DNA of 64,000 nt, from positions 1,860,001-1,924,000 of the forward strand of contig NZ_JAUSQK010000001.1 in assembly GCF_030811115.1 (NCBI RefSeq), written 5' to 3'. The notes beneath the pieces were generated by a model. It did no database searches and had not been told where the DNA came from. It saw only the letters and a list, made by a program, of their open reading frames with translations. This stretch comes from Olsenella profusa DSM 13989. GTDB taxonomy: Bacteria > Actinomycetota > Coriobacteriia > Coriobacteriales > Atopobiaceae. A program made the position numbers and the translations under genes. Of the stretch, positions 34,820 through 43,874 are shown piece by piece (positions within the stretch are counted from its first letter, which is position 1; every line of letters begins with the position of its first letter).

Positions 34820-36310
34820 CTAGCGTGCGAGCGGCAGCGCCTTCTCCAGGCGCGCGAGCGCAAGGCCGCGGCCCAAAAGCTCCAGCGACTCGCCAAGGGG
34901 CGGCGACACCTGGTTGCCGCAGACGGCGACGCGCACGGCCCCGTAGAACTTACGCTTGGTGGTGCCCAGGCGCTCGGGCAGCGGCTCCAGGGCGGCGTCG
35001 ATGGCGGCGGCGTGCCAGCCGTCCGCCGCAACGTCAAGGAGCGCCTCACGCGCGGCCTCGAGGGCGGCGTGCGCTCCGTCCCTGGAGAGGTTCCTGCTCA
35101 CGGACTTCTCGTCGAACGTCACGTCCTCGCCCTCGTAGAGGAAGCGGGACTTCTCCACCACGTCGGGCGCGAGGGTGGTGCGGGGCTTGAGGATGCTGGC
35201 GAGCAGCAGGTACCAGGCCTTGGGATGCGCCGGATCCGCCTCGCGCTCCAGGCCGGCCCCCACGAGCTCGGGCATGAGCAGCTGGAACACGAACTCCTCG
35301 TCGCTCATGGCCTGCACGTACTGCTGCTGGATCCAGTCGAGCTTCTTGAAGTCGAAGGTGGCGGGGTTCTTGGACACATGCTCCAGGGAGAACTCGCGGG
35401 CGAGCATGTCGCGCGGCACGATGGTGGTCTCGCCGTCGGGCGCCCATCCCAGAAGGGCCAGGTAGTTCACCAGCGCGTCGGCATCATAGCCGCGGTCGCG
35501 GTACTCCTCCACGGAGGTGGCCCCATGGCGCTTGGAGAGCTTCTTGCCATCAGGCCCCAGGATCATGGAGATGTGTGCGAACGCGGGCGTGGGGGCTCCG
35601 AGCGCCTCATAGACCATCACCTGGCGCGGCGTGTTGGAGAGGTGGTCATCGCCGCGGATGACGTGGGTGATCCTCATCAGGGTGTCATCGACCACGGTCG
35701 TGAAGTTGTAGGTGGGAGTGCCGTCGGTGCGCACGATGATGAAGTCGTCCAGCTCACGGGCATTGAAGGTCACGGTGCCGTGCACGGCGTCATGGATGGC
35801 CACGTCACCACGATCCTCGGGCACCTTGATGCGGATGGTGTGTGGCTCACCGGCATCCACGCGACGCCGTGCCTCGACGGGATCGATGGAGCGACAGGTG
35901 CGCTGGTACCCCTGGAAGGGATCATGGCGCTCTTCGGCCGTCTTCCGGTCCGCGGCGAGCCTCTCGGGCGTGCAGAAGCAGTAATAGGCCCTGTCTTTTG
36001 CCACCAGACGCTCGGCTGCCTCGTGATAGAGGGCGAGGCGCTGCGTCTGCCAGTAGGGGCCATAGTCGCCTCCTACCGCGGGCCCCTCGTCCCAGTCCAG
36101 CCCCAGCCAGCGCATGGCGCGCAAGATCACCTGCGTGTTCTCCTCGGTGGAGCGGGTGGGGTCGGTATCGTCGATACGCAGGATGAAGGTACCGTGGTTG
36201 GCACGGGCGAAGGCCCAGTTGTATATGGCCGTCCGTGCGCCGCCTACGTGCAGCTTGCCGGTGGGGGAGGGTGCGAAGCGCACGCGCACGGGAGTGTTCT
36301 GGTCGCTCAA
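34820..36310 (-). CDS. gltX: Glutamyl-tRNA synthetase
   Basis: 496-residue class I synthetase charging tRNA-Glu. The HIGH-equivalent is in APSPTGKLHVGGARTA near the N-terminus, the KMSKS-equivalent is KLSKRHGA. The gene begins with TTG at 36310: no in-frame ATG or GTG precedes the conserved start, and GAGAGG lies seven bases upstream. If the organism lacks glutaminyl-tRNA synthetase the enzyme may be non-discriminating and also charge tRNA-Gln; this is not decidable here. A TATACT box is at about 36347-36352 on the minus strand. Confidence 0.95.
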   Translation of the reverse strand: MSDQNTPVRVRFAPSPTGKLHVGGARTAIYNWAFARANHGTFILRIDDTDPTRSTEENTQVILRAMRWLGLDWDEGPAVGGDYGPYWQTQRLALYHEAAERLVAKDRAYYCFCTPERLAADRKTAEERHDPFQGYQRTCRSIDPVEARRRVDAGEPHTIRIKVPEDRGDVAIHDAVHGTVTFNARELDDFIIVRTDGTPTYNFTTVVDDTLMRITHVIRGDDHLSNTPRQVMVYEALGAPTPAFAHISMILGPDGKKLSKRHGATSVEEYRDRGYDADALVNYLALLGWAPDGETTIVPRDMLAREFSLEHVSKNPATFDFKKLDWIQQQYVQAMSDEEFVFQLLMPELVGAGLEREADPAHPKAWYLLLASILKPRTTLAPDVVEKSRFLYEGEDVTFDEKSVSRNLSRDGAHAALEAAREALLDVAADGWHAAAIDAALEPLPERLGTTKRKFYGAVRVAVCGNQVSPPLGESLELLGRGLALARLEKALPLAR

Positions 36311-36420
36311 GACAATGCCTCTCGCCGAGATTGCAAATCACTTGAGTATAGCTTGCTCCCTTGACGAGAGGGCACGAGCCGCGTTGGGGATTGTCGCGTG
36401 TTCCCCTCTGTCTTTTTTTG

Positions 36421-36457
36421 AATCGACGTTGAAAAATTTTCGACTTCGATTTAAAAT
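36421..36457 (+). promoter_or_regulatory. Strong promoter overlapping a 31-bp TetR-type operator
   Basis: TTGAAA at 36429-36434, a 17-bp spacer, and TAAAAT at 36452-36457: close to consensus and rare in this G+C-rich window. A 31-bp dyad centred on 36436 spans 36421-36451 with 13 of 15 positions matched (arms begin AATCGA and end TCGATT; core GTTGAAAAATTTTCGAC). The dyad covers the -35 and the spacer, so a repressor would block polymerase. The TetR gene two genes downstream is the natural candidate. Confidence 0.75.
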
Positions 36458-36514
36458 TCTTGGGCATTCGTCACGATACCGTTGCGGAGCCCCTGTGAAG
36501 GCGGAGGGGCTCGC

Positions 36515-37258
36515 ATGTACGAGGAGGAGAACGTGGAAGCCAGCAGACCACAAGGGGCTTTGGCTGCAAGGCCCTTCATTCGGGCACGGGGGCTGTCGCA
36601 GCTGAGTGCGCGCGTGAAGTCGTACGAGAACGTTGACATCGACGTTGCCGCCGGTACGGCACATGCCGTGTGCGCCGCCGACAACAGCGGCAAGACCGAG
36701 CTTCTGCTCACGCTCGCAGGGCGCATGCGACCCACTCGCGGCACGCTCACGGTGGGTGGCGTCACGGCGGACACGCTCGTCGGGCTGTCGCACGTGCGAC
36801 CCTTTGCAAGCCTGGGCTTCTTCGAGAACGTCAACGACGTGGAGATGGTTCTGCGCGTGCATGTGGTGGCCTCTGCGGAGCTGGGGCTTGCGGGCAAGCG
36901 CTCCGGTCACGCGGCGACGCAGGCGTTCCTGGAGGCCTGGGACCTCGCCGACGTGGCCGACACCAGCATCGAGGAGCTCGATCGCTACACCTTCGACCGG
37001 CTGGGCATCGCGCTGGGCATGGCCCACGACCCGCGTCTCCTGGTGGTCGATGACATCGAATCCTCGCTCACGGAGCACCAGTCGCACAAGCTCATCGGCG
37101 AGCTGCGCGGCATTGCCCACACGATGGGTACCACCATCTGCTGCGGTGTGACCGATTACGACCTCGCCGTCCTCTTCGACGGCGCGACGTGCATCAACGA
37201 CGATGCCCGCGCCCAGGCGGCCGCCTGGGCGCGCAAGCACGACAAGGAGGTTGCCTAA
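36515..37258 (+). CDS. Degenerate ABC-type ATPase associated with YhgE/Pip protein
   Basis: 247 residues with ABC-ATPase architecture but eroded motifs. Walker A reads CAADNSGKT at 53-61 (Lys60 and Thr61 kept, first Gly lost). Instead of LSGGQ there is IEELDRYTFDRLGIALG. Walker B ends VVDDIES (Asp179-Asp180), with Asp where the catalytic Glu is normal. Nucleotide binding is likely but hydrolysis doubtful. The ATG at 36515 follows GGAGGGG. One base separates its stop from the YhgE gene, so the pair may form an ABC-2-like complex. It is not a normal importer ATPase. Confidence 0.8.
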   Translation: MYEEENVEASRPQGALAARPFIRARGLSQLSARVKSYENVDIDVAAGTAHAVCAADNSGKTELLLTLAGRMRPTRGTLTVGGVTADTLVGLSHVRPFASLGFFENVNDVEMVLRVHVVASAELGLAGKRSGHAATQAFLEAWDLADVADTSIEELDRYTFDRLGIALGMAHDPRLLVVDDIESSLTEHQSHKLIGELRGIAHTMGTTICCGVTDYDLAVLFDGATCINDDARAQAAAWARKHDKEVA

Positions 37259-37259
37259 C

Positions 37260-40148
37260 ATGGAAAACCCATTCAGGGGACTGCGCTTCTCCCTCCTCGA
37301 CTTCCACTCCGCCCGCGCCAACGTTGGCATGAAGCTGGCCATGGCTGCCATCGCCATCATCCCGCTGGTCTATGGCGTGCTCTATCTCATGGCGTTCTAC
37401 GATCCCTATGGCAAGCTCGACACGCTGCCCGTGGCTGTCGTCAACGAGGACCAAGGCGCCACGCTCTCGGATGGCAGCACCATCCATGCAGGGGAGGACC
37501 TGGTGGCCCGCCTGCGTGACAGCAAGTCGCTCGACTACAGCTTCGTGGATGACGGCACGGCACAGCGCGGCATCGAGGATGGCACCTACTACCTCAAGGT
37601 GGTCATCCCCCAGGACTTCTCGCAGAACATCGCCTCGGCGGACGGCAGCGAGCCCACGCAGGCCAAGCTCGTGTTCGTGGCGAACGAAGCCAACAACTAC
37701 CTCTCGTCCATCCTGGGCAAGTCGGTGTTTCGCGAGGTGACGGCCCAGACCAACTATGCCGTGGGTGACAACTACTACGTGCAGATATTCGACAAGATCA
37801 ACGCGTCGGGTCGCGATATCCGTCGTGCGGCGGATGGGGCCTTCGACCTCGAGGACGGGCTGGGCCAAATCTCTGATGGTGCCGCCACGCTCGCCCAGGG
37901 CGCGGGCACGGCACGGGACGGTGCGAGTGCGCTTGCCGCCGGCGTGGGCTCCGCCCAGGCCGGCTCCCAGAGGATAACGACCAACTTGAACACCGCCGCC
38001 CAAGGCGCCCGTGCCCTTGCGGACGGTACGGATGCCGCGGCCGCCGGCGCGCAGACGCTTGCCAGCGGCACTGCAGCGGCAGCGAATGGCGCCACCCAGC
38101 TCTCCGGTGGCATGACCACGCTCATGGACGGCCTGGGTCGCGAATTTCAGGGCTCCAAGGAGCTTGCGAGCAAGCTGAGCCTGCTGCAGAGACAGGGCAC
38201 CGGACAGGTGGCTCAGGGCGCCCAGGCGCTGCAGGCGCAGCTCATGGCCCAGCGCGACACCATCTCCAAGCTTGGGCCCGGTGCCCAGCAGGTGTCTGAT
38301 GGCGTGAGCGAGCTCTCGGACACCCTCGGTGGCCTCCAGGATCAGGTCAGCAGCCTCGACAGTACCACCACCGACCTGCAGCATCAGATGGGGGAGCTCG
38401 AGGAGGGGCCGGGGAAGTCCCTCACGCAATCGGGGAAGTCCCTCCAGAGCCATGCGCAGGCGGCCCACGACGATGCCGCCGCGCTCACCAAGGGCATGGC
38501 TGGTGCCTCGAGCGACCTGAGCAGCGCGGGCACGCAGGCCGGAGATGCCGCGAAGTCCGCCGGCGCGGCCGCCCAGGCCCTGTCGCAGATCTCACCTCAG
38601 CAGAGCAAGGACGGCACGAACACCTACACCATCACCGCCACGGAGTATCAGGCGCTCCAGAGTGCCCAGAAGAGTGCCGCCAGCGCGTCGGACAGTGCAA
38701 AGAGGTCCGCGGCGTCCGTGCGGTCCGCGGGGGACAAGATGAAGGCGTTGAGTTCATCCTCCCTGAGCCAAGATCTCGAAAGCCTCAAGAAGGACCTCGA
38801 AGGCATCCAGCAGAGCTCCACGTCGCTGGTTGACGGTGCGAGCAAGCTGCTCAAAAGCTCGAAGCAGGCCATTTCCGGTGCGCAGAAGCTCGTCAGTGGC
38901 CTTTCGGACAAGAAGGACGACCTCAAGAAGCTGACCGATGGCGCACAGGAGGTGGCCAAGGGTGCCACCACGGTGACCCAGCAGCTTACCCAGGCCACCG
39001 ACGGCACGGGCGCACCCACCATCTACGGTGGCATCGTACGTCTCTCGCAGGGGGCCACGCAGGTGGACAACAACATGAGGGCCGCCGTGGGTGGGGCGGA
39101 GGAGCTCTCGATGGGCGCGCGCCAGCTCTCCGATGGCGCGCAGTCCGCGAAAGGGGGCGCGACCACCCTCGCCGAGGCATTGGGCCTGCTGAACAGGGGC
39201 TCGAACACGCTCGCCGCGGGCCTGGGCTCCGTTCGCCCGGGCGCCCACACCCTCGCCGACGGCCTTGGCCTGCTGTCCCGGGGCTCCGCCACGCTCACGA
39301 GTGGGCTGGGCACGGCGGCGGATGGCGCTACCTCTCTCGCGAAGGGTGCCGCGGCACTCTCCGATGGCGCAACCACGCTCGCAGGGGCGACCGACACGGC
39401 ATATGACGGATCCAAGACCCTTGCCGACGGCCTGGAGAGTGGTGCGGCCACGGTGGCCGACCAGACGGCCCACGCTGACGAGCGGGCCAGCATGATGAGC
39501 CAGCCGGTGGCCCTTGCCACCGACAACTACACCACGGTCGCCAACTACGGCACGGGCTTCGCCCCCTACTTCATTGCCTTGGGGCTCTGGGTCGGCGCCC
39601 TCGTGATGACGTTCATCCTGAAGCCGCTCAATCGCAGGCTCATCTGCTCGGGCGCCAACCCCGTCGTCGCCGCGTTCTCGGGCCTCGTGCCCTGGCTCAT
39701 CGTGGGCATCATCCAATCCATCATCCTCGGTCTCGTCGTTCAGTTCCCGCTCCAGCTTGACATCATCCACGTCGCCGCCTTCTACCTGCTCATCATCCTT
39801 GCGAGCGCCGTGTTCTGCGCGATGATTCAGATGATCACGGCCGTTCTGGGCTTCCCCGGAAAGTTCGTCGCCGTCATCCTGCTCATGCTGCAGCTTACGA
39901 GCGCGGCAGGAACGTTCCCCATCCAGACGGAGCCCTCCGTCTTCCAGGCGATCAGTCCCTACATGCCCATGACATACGTCGTTCACGCGCTCAGAATCGC
40001 TACTCGCGGCATTGACCTCTCCCTTGTGACGGGGGATGTGGCTATCCTGTTACTGTTTGGTGGCATATCGTTCCTCATCACCTGCCTTGCGGCGCGCCGT
40101 CGCCGTCTCGTGACCATGAACGACCTGCACCCGCTGGTTGATCTGTAG
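37260..40148 (+). CDS. YhgE/Pip-domain membrane protein
   Basis: 962 residues. One helix at 24-46 is followed by the YhgE/Pip N-terminal domain (LPVAVVNEDQGA, DGTYYLKVVIPQDFSQNIAS). About 570 extracellular residues of repeated small-residue heptads follow (LADGTDAAAAGAQTLASG and similar), predicted as a long coiled stalk. Five to six C-terminal helices from about residue 768 resemble ABC-2 permeases (ALGLWVGALVMTFIL...). The family includes the phage-infection protein Pip and ESX-like secretion components of Gram-positives. AAGGAGG lies before the ATG at 37260. Export of a protein or lipid through this pair is inference. Confidence 0.88.
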   Translation: MENPFRGLRFSLLDFHSARANVGMKLAMAAIAIIPLVYGVLYLMAFYDPYGKLDTLPVAVVNEDQGATLSDGSTIHAGEDLVARLRDSKSLDYSFVDDGTAQRGIEDGTYYLKVVIPQDFSQNIASADGSEPTQAKLVFVANEANNYLSSILGKSVFREVTAQTNYAVGDNYYVQIFDKINASGRDIRRAADGAFDLEDGLGQISDGAATLAQGAGTARDGASALAAGVGSAQAGSQRITTNLNTAAQGARALADGTDAAAAGAQTLASGTAAAANGATQLSGGMTTLMDGLGREFQGSKELASKLSLLQRQGTGQVAQGAQALQAQLMAQRDTISKLGPGAQQVSDGVSELSDTLGGLQDQVSSLDSTTTDLQHQMGELEEGPGKSLTQSGKSLQSHAQAAHDDAAALTKGMAGASSDLSSAGTQAGDAAKSAGAAAQALSQISPQQSKDGTNTYTITATEYQALQSAQKSAASASDSAKRSAASVRSAGDKMKALSSSSLSQDLESLKKDLEGIQQSSTSLVDGASKLLKSSKQAISGAQKLVSGLSDKKDDLKKLTDGAQEVAKGATTVTQQLTQATDGTGAPTIYGGIVRLSQGATQVDNNMRAAVGGAEELSMGARQLSDGAQSAKGGATTLAEALGLLNRGSNTLAAGLGSVRPGAHTLADGLGLLSRGSATLTSGLGTAADGATSLAKGAAALSDGATTLAGATDTAYDGSKTLADGLESGAATVADQTAHADERASMMSQPVALATDNYTTVANYGTGFAPYFIALGLWVGALVMTFILKPLNRRLICSGANPVVAAFSGLVPWLIVGIIQSIILGLVVQFPLQLDIIHVAAFYLLIILASAVFCAMIQMITAVLGFPGKFVAVILLMLQLTSAAGTFPIQTEPSVFQAISPYMPMTYVVHALRIATRGIDLSLVTGDVAILLLFGGISFLITCLAARRRRLVTMNDLHPLVDL

Positions 40149-40178
40149 GACGACGAGGCTACGCGAGGGGGTTGCGGT

Positions 40179-40916
40179 ATGAGTTCCCTGTCACAGAACC
40201 TCCTCTTGGACGCCACCGGTGGCACCCTGCTCGATGGGGTGCACGACGTCCGAGAGGCCACGCACCAGGCAATCGAGAGGCACATCGAGAGTATCGGCAA
40301 GCACCATAGCCCGCGCTTTTCGTCAAAGACCAAGAAGAGCGCCGCCACGCGCGAGCGCATCATCAAGGCCGCCTCGAAGCTGATCATGCGGCGGGTGGGC
40401 ACCAACTTCCAGATGAGCGAGATCTCCGAGATGTGCCACATGTCCAAGGGTGCCCTGTACTATTACTTCCGCAACAGGGATGACCTCGTGGAGGCCGTGT
40501 TCTCGCAGGCGCTCGAGGACTTCTCGCAGCGTCTGCGCGAGGTGGGGGATGGCGCAGAAAGTGCGTGCGATGCCCTCTGCGACATGTGCGATGCGTTCGA
40601 GCAGTCCCTCATCGGGGAGGGCACGCTCGTGCTCGCGGTCATCCGCGAGCTGCTGCAGGCGCGTGACAACATGCTGCCTCAGATCGAGGAGCGCTTCGGG
40701 GGCCTGACGTCCATCATCTGCGACCAGGTCGAGCGTGGCAAGCGCGAGGGTCTCATCAGCGAGAGCGTGGACAGCGAGCTTGCTGCCAGCATGCTCTGCG
40801 GATGCATGAGCTTCGCGACCATCAGTGTCTCGTTGCGGGAGGGCCGTGCTGCGGGCTCCGAGAGCCTGGGAACGACGCTCTTTCGGCAGCTCATGGAAGG
40901 CATCGGCGTCAGATAG
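40179..40916 (+). CDS. TetR-family transcriptional regulator
   Basis: 245 residues. The helix-turn-helix lies at about 55-105 (ATRERIIKAASKLIMRRVG, MSEISEMCHMSKGALYYYFRNRDDLVEAVF), preceded by an unusual 55-residue N-terminal extension. The C-terminal helical domain would bind an inducer. Third gene of the ABC-YhgE operon, 30 bp after it, so likely autoregulating through the dyad at 36421. An alternative start closer to the HTH is possible, but no better ribosome site is seen. Confidence 0.9.
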   Translation: MSSLSQNLLLDATGGTLLDGVHDVREATHQAIERHIESIGKHHSPRFSSKTKKSAATRERIIKAASKLIMRRVGTNFQMSEISEMCHMSKGALYYYFRNRDDLVEAVFSQALEDFSQRLREVGDGAESACDALCDMCDAFEQSLIGEGTLVLAVIRELLQARDNMLPQIEERFGGLTSIICDQVERGKREGLISESVDSELAASMLCGCMSFATISVSLREGRAAGSESLGTTLFRQLMEGIGVR

Positions 40917-41025
40917 GCAGCCCTGTCCTGGGCGGCGCGTGCGACTTCCTGCCTTTGACCAAGGTTCGAAATTCTTGCCCCTGCCTATTTACAAGGACAG
41001 GCAGGTTGCCGTAGGCTTAGCCCTG

Positions 41026-41152
41026 CTCGTCGAGAGGCGCATGCCCTGGTGCAGCGCATAGAGCCGAGGGACCGAGCCCGTTGACGCTCCGACAACCAGC
41101 ATCCGCATGGTGCCACATCTCGGCAGCGCACGGGCGTGCGCTGGAAGACGGG
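41026..41152 (+). promoter_or_regulatory. SAM riboswitch (SAM-I-like)
   Basis: P1 pairs CTCGTC (41026-41031) with GACGGG (41147-41152). Inside are the clan motifs: CGAGAGGCGC, then GAGGGACCGAGCCCGTTGA and CTCCGACAACC, then ATGGTGCCACATCTCGGC. GAGCCC for GGCCC and GACAACC for GCAACC depart slightly from the SAM-I consensus. Downstream are GTGGGG/CCCCC and GGCGCG/GCGCC hairpins, then the GGAAGGGAAC ribosome site and no T-run, so translational control is likely. It leads metK, the SAM synthetase gene: product feedback. Confidence 0.85.
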
Positions 41153-41235
41153 GGAGCGGTGCCAGTGACACGGTATCCCCTCATATAGGTGGGGCTCTGC
41201 CCCCAAGAGGCGCGTCGCGCCGGAAGGGAACGTTC

Positions 41236-42486
41236 ATGGCACACCAGAACTACCTCTTTACCTCGGAATCCGTTACCGAGGGCCATCCCGACAAGATCTG
41301 CGACCAGATATCGGATGCCGTGCTCGATGCCATCCTCGAGAAGGAGGCGCGGCTGGAGAAGAGGGGGTACGTCTCCCCCACGGGCATTCCCGCTCGCCTC
41401 GATGACGTGCGCTGCGCCGTGGAGACCTTCACGACCACGGGCACCATCGCCGTGATGGGCGAGGTGCGTACCCAGGCCTACGTGGACGTGCAGCAGGTCG
41501 TCCGCGAGACGCTGCGCCGCATTGGCTACGACCGCGCCAAGTACGGCTTCGACTGCGACACCTGCGGCGTCATCAACATGATCCACGAGCAGTCTCCCGA
41601 CATCGCGCAGGGCGTGGACGGCACGTTCGCGCGTGCGGACGACGAGGACGCCATCGACAGGATCGGTGCCGGGGATCAGGGGATGATGTTCGGCTATGCC
41701 ACCGACGAGACCGACGTGCTCATGCCCATGCCCATCTACCTCGCGCAGCGCCTGGCCCAGCGCCTGGCCGAGGTGCGCAAGAACGGCTCGCTCTCCTACC
41801 TGCGCCCCGACGGCAAGACCCAGGTGACGGTGCGCTACGAGCACGACCGTCCCAAGGAGGTCATGGCCATCGTGGTCTCCACGCAGCATGCCGCCGATGT
41901 GGAGCTGGGCCAGATCCGCGAGGACATCATCGCGCATGTCATCCGGCCCATCTTGGATGGGGTCGGCATCGCCTGGGAGGACGCCGCCATCTACGTGAAC
42001 CCCACCGGGCGCTTCGTCGTCGGCGGTCCCATGGGTGACACCGGTCTCACCGGCCGCAAGATCGTCGTCGACACCTACGGTGGCATGGGCCGTCACGGCG
42101 GCGGTGCCTTCTCGGGCAAGGATCCCACCAAGGTCGACCGCTCCGCCGCCTATGCGGCCCGTTGGGTTGCCAAGAACATCGTCGCCGCAGGCCTTGCCCG
42201 CAAGTGCGAGGTGGAGCTCGCCTATGCCATCGGCATCAGCCAGCCGCTCTCCATCATGGTGGACAGCCTCGGCACCGCGACGGTCGATGACTCCGTGCTC
42301 GACAGAGCCGTGAGCGAGGTCTTCGACCTGCGTCCCGGCGCCATCATCCGCGACCTCAGGCTGTGCCGCCCCATCTATGGGAAGACGGCTGCCTATGGCC
42401 ACTTCGGCCGCACCGATCCCGACTTCACCTGGGAGGCCGTCAACCGAACGGACGAGCTCAAGGCTGCGGTGGCCGCGCTCTCGTAG
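41236..42486 (+). CDS. metK: S-adenosylmethionine synthetase
   Basis: Makes SAM from methionine and ATP. 416 residues with [51 protein letters not shown] and [19 protein letters not shown], all canonical. The start at 41236 is seven bases from GAAGGG. It lies behind the SAM riboswitch. Single gene, converging on the GH13 gene at 42588. Confidence 0.97.
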
Positions 42487-42587
42487 CATGGCTCGTGGCA
42501 TGCGGGGTGCTTGGCGCGCGGGTTCCGCCATGCACCCACGGCATGAACGGCATCCCGTGGGACGGGACGTGGGTCGTTGCGCCTTCC

Positions 42588-43874
<1,287 letters not shown>

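What the first reader, a model, noticed from the sequence alone, without database searches (positions are those of the whole stretch)
36421..36457. Near-consensus promoter covered by a 31-bp dyad upstream of the ABC-YhgE-TetR operon
TTGAAA-17-TAAAAT is the best promoter in the window; the dyad (13 of 15 matched, centre 36436) spans its -35 and spacer. Together with a TetR gene at the end of the operon it predicts a tightly repressed, inducible system.
Basis: partly seen in the sequence, partly recalled or inferred. Interest (0 to 1): 0.52.

Follow-up and report, generated by a model that had tools for sequence, protein, structure and literature searches.

The report
Tandem repressor sites over transporter promoter

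Summary
Observation confirmed. In Olsenella profusa the 31-bp dyad (36421-36451, 13 of 15) and TTGAAA-17-TAAAAT (36429-36457) exist and exceed chance: 0 of 5000 local shuffles reach the dyad, 0.12% the promoter. Relatives change the reading. In the window and 21 relative loci upstream of the ABC gene, and in 10 loci between a YhgE pair and the same TetR, the locus's best match to a leave-genus-out motif (TTTTTGAA-N5-TTCAAAAA type) lies in this region: 32 of 32, against 3-17 of 32 with shuffled regions. The window holds two such sites, 36415-36435 and 36437-36457, its two best in 64 kb. The dyad is their inner part: it falls to 8 of 15 in the sister species, while the 45-bp island is 35 of 45 identical, against 8-15 of 45 in flanks. 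Best explanation: two operators, four half-sites at 11-bp steps, through which the co-transcribed TetR represses its own operon. Binding, inducer and tightness are untested. New member of a known kind. Side findings: a degenerate ABC subunit; the motif before metK in three relatives.

The parts
36415..36435 (.). operator-like element 1, TTTTTGAATCGACGTTGAAAA (half-site boxes TTTGAA at 36417 and GTTGAA at 36428)
   Evidence: second-best position of the window to a PWM trained without this genus, 14.6-14.7 bits
36437..36457 (.). operator-like element 2, TTTTCGACTTCGATTTAAAAT (boxes TTCGAC at 36439 and TTTAAA at 36450)
   Evidence: best position in the window, 15.75-15.8 bits; single-site score reached in 32 of 1000 local shuffles, two sites >=14.6 in 0 of 5000
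   Evidence: 13 of 15 pairs; 8 of 15 at the same place in L056
36429..36457 (+). predicted sigma-70-type promoter TTGAAA-17-TAAAAT
   Evidence: 10 of 12; in L056 TTGAAA-17-CAAAAT, 9 of 12
36413..36457 (+). 45-bp conserved island shared with sister species L056
   Evidence: 35 of 45 identical without gaps; flanks 8-15 of 45
36515..37258 (+). degenerate ABC-ATPase-like protein (start ATG 36515 or GTG 36534, not settled)
   Evidence: PF00005 24.9 bits against cut-off 25; LSGGQ and H-loop His missing, Asp at the catalytic Glu position (read by eye)
37260..40148 (+). YhgE/Pip family membrane protein
   Evidence: TIGR03061 170.3 and TIGR03062 205.1 bits, both over cut-off
40179..40916 (+). TetR-family regulator, the protein proposed to bind the two elements
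   Evidence: TetR_N 41.5 bits, TetR_C_4 25.1 bits; AlphaFold2 model mean pLDDT 79.3, best fold matches FadR and other TetR proteins
40953..40973 (.). weak third copy of the motif in front of metK, CTTTGACCAAGGTTCGAAATT
   Evidence: 8.4 bits, next best separate place in the window; 100 of 5000 local shuffles reach it

Best explanation
36413-36457 is the control region of the ABC-YhgE-TetR operon. It holds two tandem operators, each two TTYRAA-like half-sites 11 bp apart. In this genome the four half-sites follow one another at 11-bp steps (36417, 36428, 36439, 36450), so they lie on roughly one face of the helix. The TetR protein encoded last in the operon binds them, probably one dimer per operator and possibly cooperatively, and blocks RNA polymerase at the overlapping -35, spacer and -10. 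This is negative autoregulation. A ligand entering the C-terminal pocket, likely a hydrophobic or acyl compound by likeness to FadR, would release it and switch on the YhgE exporter. Shown: the sequence elements, their conservation, gene order and protein families. Inferred: co-transcription, binding, which protein binds, dimer number, repression, ligand.
For: Leave-genus-out motif: the best site of the whole locus lies in the control region in 22 of 22 ABC-type loci (window included) and 10 of 10 YhgE-pair loci. The procedure repeated on shuffled regions gives 3-17 of 32, and sites >=12 bits in 0-1 of 32 against 31 of 32 real. Against local shuffles that keep the AT content, 14 of 19 distinct ABC-type and 6 of 9 distinct pair-type loci score at <=10 of 1000, but 1 of 8 loci where TetR has no recognised adjacent transporter. 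A second site >=9.6 bits lies 19-32 bp from the first in 17 of 22 ABC-type loci. The window's pair is reached in 0 of 5000 local shuffles. Footprint: 35 of 45 against 8-15 of 45 in flanks. ABC-YhgE-TetR run the same way, TetR last, in 16 of 21 relatives. The best predicted promoter overlaps an element in 16 of 19 loci, one by 2 nt.
Against: No binding data. The window's own sites are among the weaker ones: the best single site is reached in about 3% of local shuffles, and each differs from TTTGAA-N5-TTCAAA at 3 of 12 positions (counted by eye). Local shuffles exceed 10 of 1000 in 5 of 19 ABC-type loci (window 32, L056 20, L066 60, L073 12, L075 28) and 3 of 9 pair-type loci. The EM seed was chosen after I had looked at these same regions. 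In the own genome the pattern with 3 mismatches gives 214 places against 142 for the reversed control, so it is not specific by itself. AT-rich hexamers near a promoter may partly be promoter elements. L070, counted as a hit at 12.5 bits, really carries another palindrome (TTTCTACCCGGTAGAAA). In L057, L065, L066 and L073 no second site >=9.6 bits was found.
Confidence: 0.78

Rival explanations
1. The 31-bp dyad itself is a single operator bound symmetrically about 36436.
For: 13 of 15 pairs, 0 of 5000 local shuffles, so the symmetry of this copy is real; a two-dimer operator could be symmetric as a whole.
Against: 8 of 15 at the homologous place in the sister species although the boxes are kept; in 13 of 20 ABC-type loci of other genera the two sites are 28-32 bp apart, which removes this axis; in L081, L090 and L095 only one strong palindromic site was found (second 7.6, -0.3 and 9.0 bits).
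Confidence: 0.12
2. The AT-rich boxes are promoter and UP-type elements read by RNA polymerase, with no repressor.
For: Local GC 0.34 against 0.65 in the window; boxes resemble TTGAAA and TAAAAT; best predicted promoters overlap them in 16 of 19 loci, which is also what AT-richness alone would favour; shuffled regions also rank top in up to 17 of 32 loci.
Against: Scores exceed local shuffles that keep AT content in most loci (14 of 19 and 6 of 9 at <=10 of 1000); the motif lies between divergent genes in the 10 YhgE-pair loci, and in 6 of 8 loci without a recognised transporter the region upstream of tetR does not hold the best site.
Confidence: 0.1
3. The sites belong to another DNA-binding protein, not to the linked TetR.
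For: Linkage is not proof of binding.
Against: The motif keeps company with this TetR in two gene arrangements; in other families of the order, where the linked TetR is 21-28% identical (found in 12 of 15 stretches), a site >=12 bits within 300 bp upstream of the ABC gene was seen in 1 of 15 loci, L123.
Confidence: 0.08

Closest known systems
TetR-family autorepressed exporter operons (TetR, QacR, AcrR type; recalled)
   Same: TetR regulator beside a transporter with palindromic sites over the promoter; two adjacent sites recall QacR, where two dimers bind one operator (recalled)
   Different: regulator is the last gene of the operon, not divergent; four half-sites at 11-bp steps; binding not tested
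FadR (YsiA) of Bacillus, TetR_C_4 type
   Same: best solved relatives by sequence 3whb, 1vi0, 5gpa, 5gp9; 5gpa, 5gp9 and 3whb also among the first five fold matches
   Different: 60.5 bits against the NCBIfam FadR cut-off of 200; 19-23% identity in the fold matches; different neighbours; about 50 extra N-terminal residues (FadR profile starts at residue 59)
YhgE/Pip proteins with a neighbouring TetR (B. subtilis YhgD-YhgE, neighbourhood recalled)
   Same: YhgE membrane protein with a TetR gene; PMC3814354 (passages) names YhgD as a TetR/AcrR member
   Different: a degenerate ABC subunit is added; the locus lies between gltX and metK; the listings and passages I saw name no operator for such a TetR, but most listed papers were not opened

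Membership tests
TetR family | TetR_N helix-turn-helix domain over Pfam cut-off | tested here: met
   PF00440 41.5 bits against 24
TetR family | palindromic or tandem operator-like sequence overlapping the predicted promoter of the linked operon (sequence level only) | tested here: met
   motif in 32 of 32 loci with a recognised adjacent transporter; predicted promoter overlaps an element in 16 of 19
TetR family | DNA binding relieved by a ligand | not testable with these tools
   needs gel shift or reporter
FadR acyl-CoA regulator | TetR_C_4 domain | tested here: met
   PF08359 25.1 bits against 21
FadR acyl-CoA regulator | NCBIfam FadR equivalog score | tested here: not met
   NF053878 60.5 bits against 200
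YhgE/Pip family | N- and C-terminal YhgE domains over cut-off | tested here: met
   TIGR03061 170.3 against 96.15, TIGR03062 205.1 against 102.2
ABC transporter ATPase | Pfam score, signature LSGGQ, Walker B Asp plus catalytic Glu, H-loop His | tested here: not met
   PF00005 24.9 against 25. Read by eye: no LSGGQ and no H-loop His in the 22 family members and 15 order relatives aligned; Asp at the catalytic Glu position, except L075 and L076, which have Glu there but Gln for the Walker B Asp
QacR-type two-dimer operator | two dimers bound per operator | not testable with these tools
   only the tandem sites were seen

The most novel reading that the evidence does not exclude
One TetR, standing between gltX and metK in this bacterial family, controls both a YhgE exporter that uses a non-hydrolysing ABC-like subunit and, in some members, the SAM synthetase gene metK through the same operator. 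That would link envelope or lipid stress to SAM supply.
Probability: 0.15. Interest if true: 0.55.

Novelty: new member of a known kind. Interest (0 to 1): 0.33.

Why it matters
It gives a concrete, testable operator, TTTGAA-N5-TTCAAA and its tandem form, for a widespread regulator of YhgE-type exporters in this family of Coriobacteriia. I did not find such an operator in print, but the search was thin: one search returned one paper (on Bifidobacteria, listing only), and one search listed 10 of 337 papers, its term 'tetr' also matching tetracycline. YhgE/Pip function is poorly known (my own knowledge). An operator and reporter would give a direct way to find what induces these exporters.

Tried and rejected
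Genome-wide regulon: with TTTGAANNNNNTTCAAA and 3 mismatches the own genome gives 214 places against 142 for the reversed control; only the first places were listed. Of the 12 two-mismatch places listed, three score 11.2-14.5 bits at the matched place (L106, L102, L100), L100 inside a 101-aa ORF. From the ORF lists, not scanned with Pfam, I recognised no transporter beside them; no regulon is claimed. The second, weak YhgE-like hit of the genome (L132) has no site: best 2.7 bits. The same motif upstream of ABC genes in other families of the order: 1 of 15. Rfam at gathering threshold: nothing in 36000-42600. Literature, passages only: PMC5816558, a methanogen under lauric acid, YhgE/Pip-like gene log2 -1.31; PMC11728337, butanol response table; PMC8754111, a YhgE gene changed in ginkgolic-acid-selected E. 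faecalis; PMC9634178, licochalcone-A-selected E. faecalis with changes in a TetR and a YhgE/Pip gene among others. These suggest amphiphiles as inducers or substrates but prove nothing here. Considered and rejected: motif ranking explained by AT content alone. The window-L056 alignment printed was one base out of register, as was the L056 box line; the 45-nt comparison replaces the first, and I read the L056 boxes from it.

Caveats on counts: four near-duplicate loci (L063, L068, L076, L085) were left out of training and of the local-shuffle table but counted. I used 39 relative loci, 21 with the ABC gene and 18 chosen by me from the TetR table (88 of 140 genomes); not a random sample. The same-species genome G039 was not counted; L003, the public record of that species, has an identical island. 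One search leaves out the 8 loci without a recognised adjacent transporter; two of these, L087 (11.3 bits) and L093 (5.8 bits), also had their best site in the region, and six did not.

Full report
Setting. The window is Olsenella profusa (TetR 100% identical to that of strain F0195; window = bases 1860001-1924000 of a 2.6 Mb single contig). gltX (34820-36310, minus strand) is followed by an ABC-like gene, a YhgE/Pip gene (37260-40148) and a TetR gene (40179-40916), then metK.

Observation. The dyad has 13 of 15 pairs. The window has 2 such dyads with this arm and gap, 20 shuffles of the window average 0.15, and local shuffles never reach it (0 of 5000). TTGAAA-17-TAAAAT is the only + strand match of 10/12 in 64 kb and arises in 0.12% of local shuffles. 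So the feature is real.

Relatives. The TetR is found in 88 of 140 family genomes (E <= 1e-15) and the ABC-like gene in 23 of 140. I fetched 39 relative loci. Three arrangements were seen: ABC and YhgE with TetR (21 loci besides the window; TetR last and in the same direction in 16, TetR upstream in 3, TetR not in the stretch in 2); a YhgE pair divergent from TetR (10 loci); TetR without a recognised adjacent transporter (8 loci). gltX and metK flank these where the stretch reaches them in most loci.

The motif. Reading the upstream regions shows repeated TTTGAA-N5-TTCAAA-like 17-mers, often two per promoter. I trained a symmetric 21-column matrix, always leaving out the tested genus. In 22 of 22 ABC-type loci (window included) and 10 of 10 YhgE-pair loci the best site of the whole locus lies in the control region. 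With the regions shuffled and the procedure repeated 20 times this happens in 3-17 of 32 loci, and sites of 12 bits or more in 0-1 of 32, against 31 of 32 real. A stricter control with shuffles of the local AT-rich island (up to 71 nt) gives <=10 of 1000 in 14 of 19 distinct ABC-type loci, 6 of 9 distinct pair loci and 1 of 8 loci without a recognised transporter. The window is among the weaker cases (32 of 1000 for its best single site), but two sites of its strength occur in 0 of 5000 shuffles. The seed of the matrix was chosen after looking at the regions, which these controls reduce but do not remove.

What the dyad is. In the window the two sites are 36415-36435 and 36437-36457, ranks 2 and 1 of the window. 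Boxes TTTGAA, GTTGAA, TTCGAC, TTTAAA start at 36417, 36428, 36439, 36450, steps of 11 bp. The sister species L056 keeps the island ungapped at 35 of 45 while flanks are at 8-15 of 45; read from that alignment its boxes are TTCGAA, GTTGAA, ATTGAC, TTCAAA. In 13 of the 20 ABC-type loci of other genera the second site is 28-32 bp away, in L075 and L076 19 bp, in L070 43 bp, and in four none was found. The 31-bp dyad is therefore a property of this copy, made from the inner parts of two operators.

Promoter. TTGAAA lies in the right half of site 1 and TAAAAT in the right half of site 2. In L056 the -10 reads CAAAAT. In several other genera a TAGACT- or AATACT-like -10 lies further downstream. The best predicted promoter overlaps an element in 16 of 19 loci (one by 2 nt), using approximate recalled sigma-70 weights; AT-richness alone favours this. 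The exact start is not settled.

Mechanism. The TetR has a normal TetR_N domain and a TetR_C_4 domain. The nearest solved relatives are Bacillus FadR proteins by sequence, and FadR is among the best fold matches, though it is not FadR by the NCBIfam cut-off. The most likely scheme is autorepression through two operators on one helical face, relieved by a hydrophobic ligand, switching on YhgE. Co-transcription, binding, stoichiometry and ligand are inferred.

Side results. The ABC-like subunit has 24.9 bits to PF00005 (cut-off 25). Read by eye, it lacks LSGGQ and the H-loop His in all 22 family members and 15 order relatives aligned; the catalytic Glu is Asp except in L075 and L076, where Glu follows a lost Walker B Asp; Walker A is near canonical in 14 of the 15 order relatives and altered in this family. 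TetR also stands by ABC and YhgE in 12 of the 15 stretches fetched from other families of the order. Between tetR (or YhgE) and metK the motif scores 18.0-18.7 bits in 3 of the 6 loci without a recognised transporter that I scanned there (L079, L080, L091; not in L086, L092, L093) and at most 8.1 bits in the other 19 relatives scanned; in those three it precedes a TTTAC(A/T) hexamer. The window has a weak copy at 40953-40973 (8.4 bits, 100 of 5000 local shuffles).

Verdict. Observation confirmed, interpretation partly supported, ordinary kind of system, interest 0.33.

Noticed in passing
36515-37258: The ABC subunit is a degenerate ABC ATPase: no LSGGQ, no H-loop His, Asp at the catalytic Glu position, altered Walker A. 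Relatives occur in 59 of 395 genomes of the order at E<=1e-25.
   Followed up: partly
40953-40973; L079, L080, L091 between tetR and metK: The TetR-type motif also stands in front of metK, strongly (18.0-18.7 bits) in 3 of 6 scanned relatives without a recognised adjacent transporter and weakly in the window.
   Followed up: partly
41044-41154: SAM-I riboswitch-like leader of metK, 30.5 bits, below the Rfam gathering score of 44.4 (E 5e-5).
   Followed up: no
36487-36512: Perfect 8-bp hairpin GAGCCCCT...AGGGGCTC just before ATG 36515 that would cover a possible Shine-Dalgarno; fold z-score -1.86. The start may instead be GTG 36534 after AGGAGG.
   Followed up: no
gltX-metK interval in L056-L095: The same chromosomal slot carries either ABC+YhgE with TetR, a divergent YhgE pair with TetR, or TetR without a recognised transporter.
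   Followed up: partly
L070, about 70-130 nt before the ABC gene match: Two copies of a different palindrome, TTTCTACCCGGTAGAAA and a variant, replace the usual sites; L080 and L087 have forms that look hybrid. Possible change of TetR specificity.
   Followed up: no
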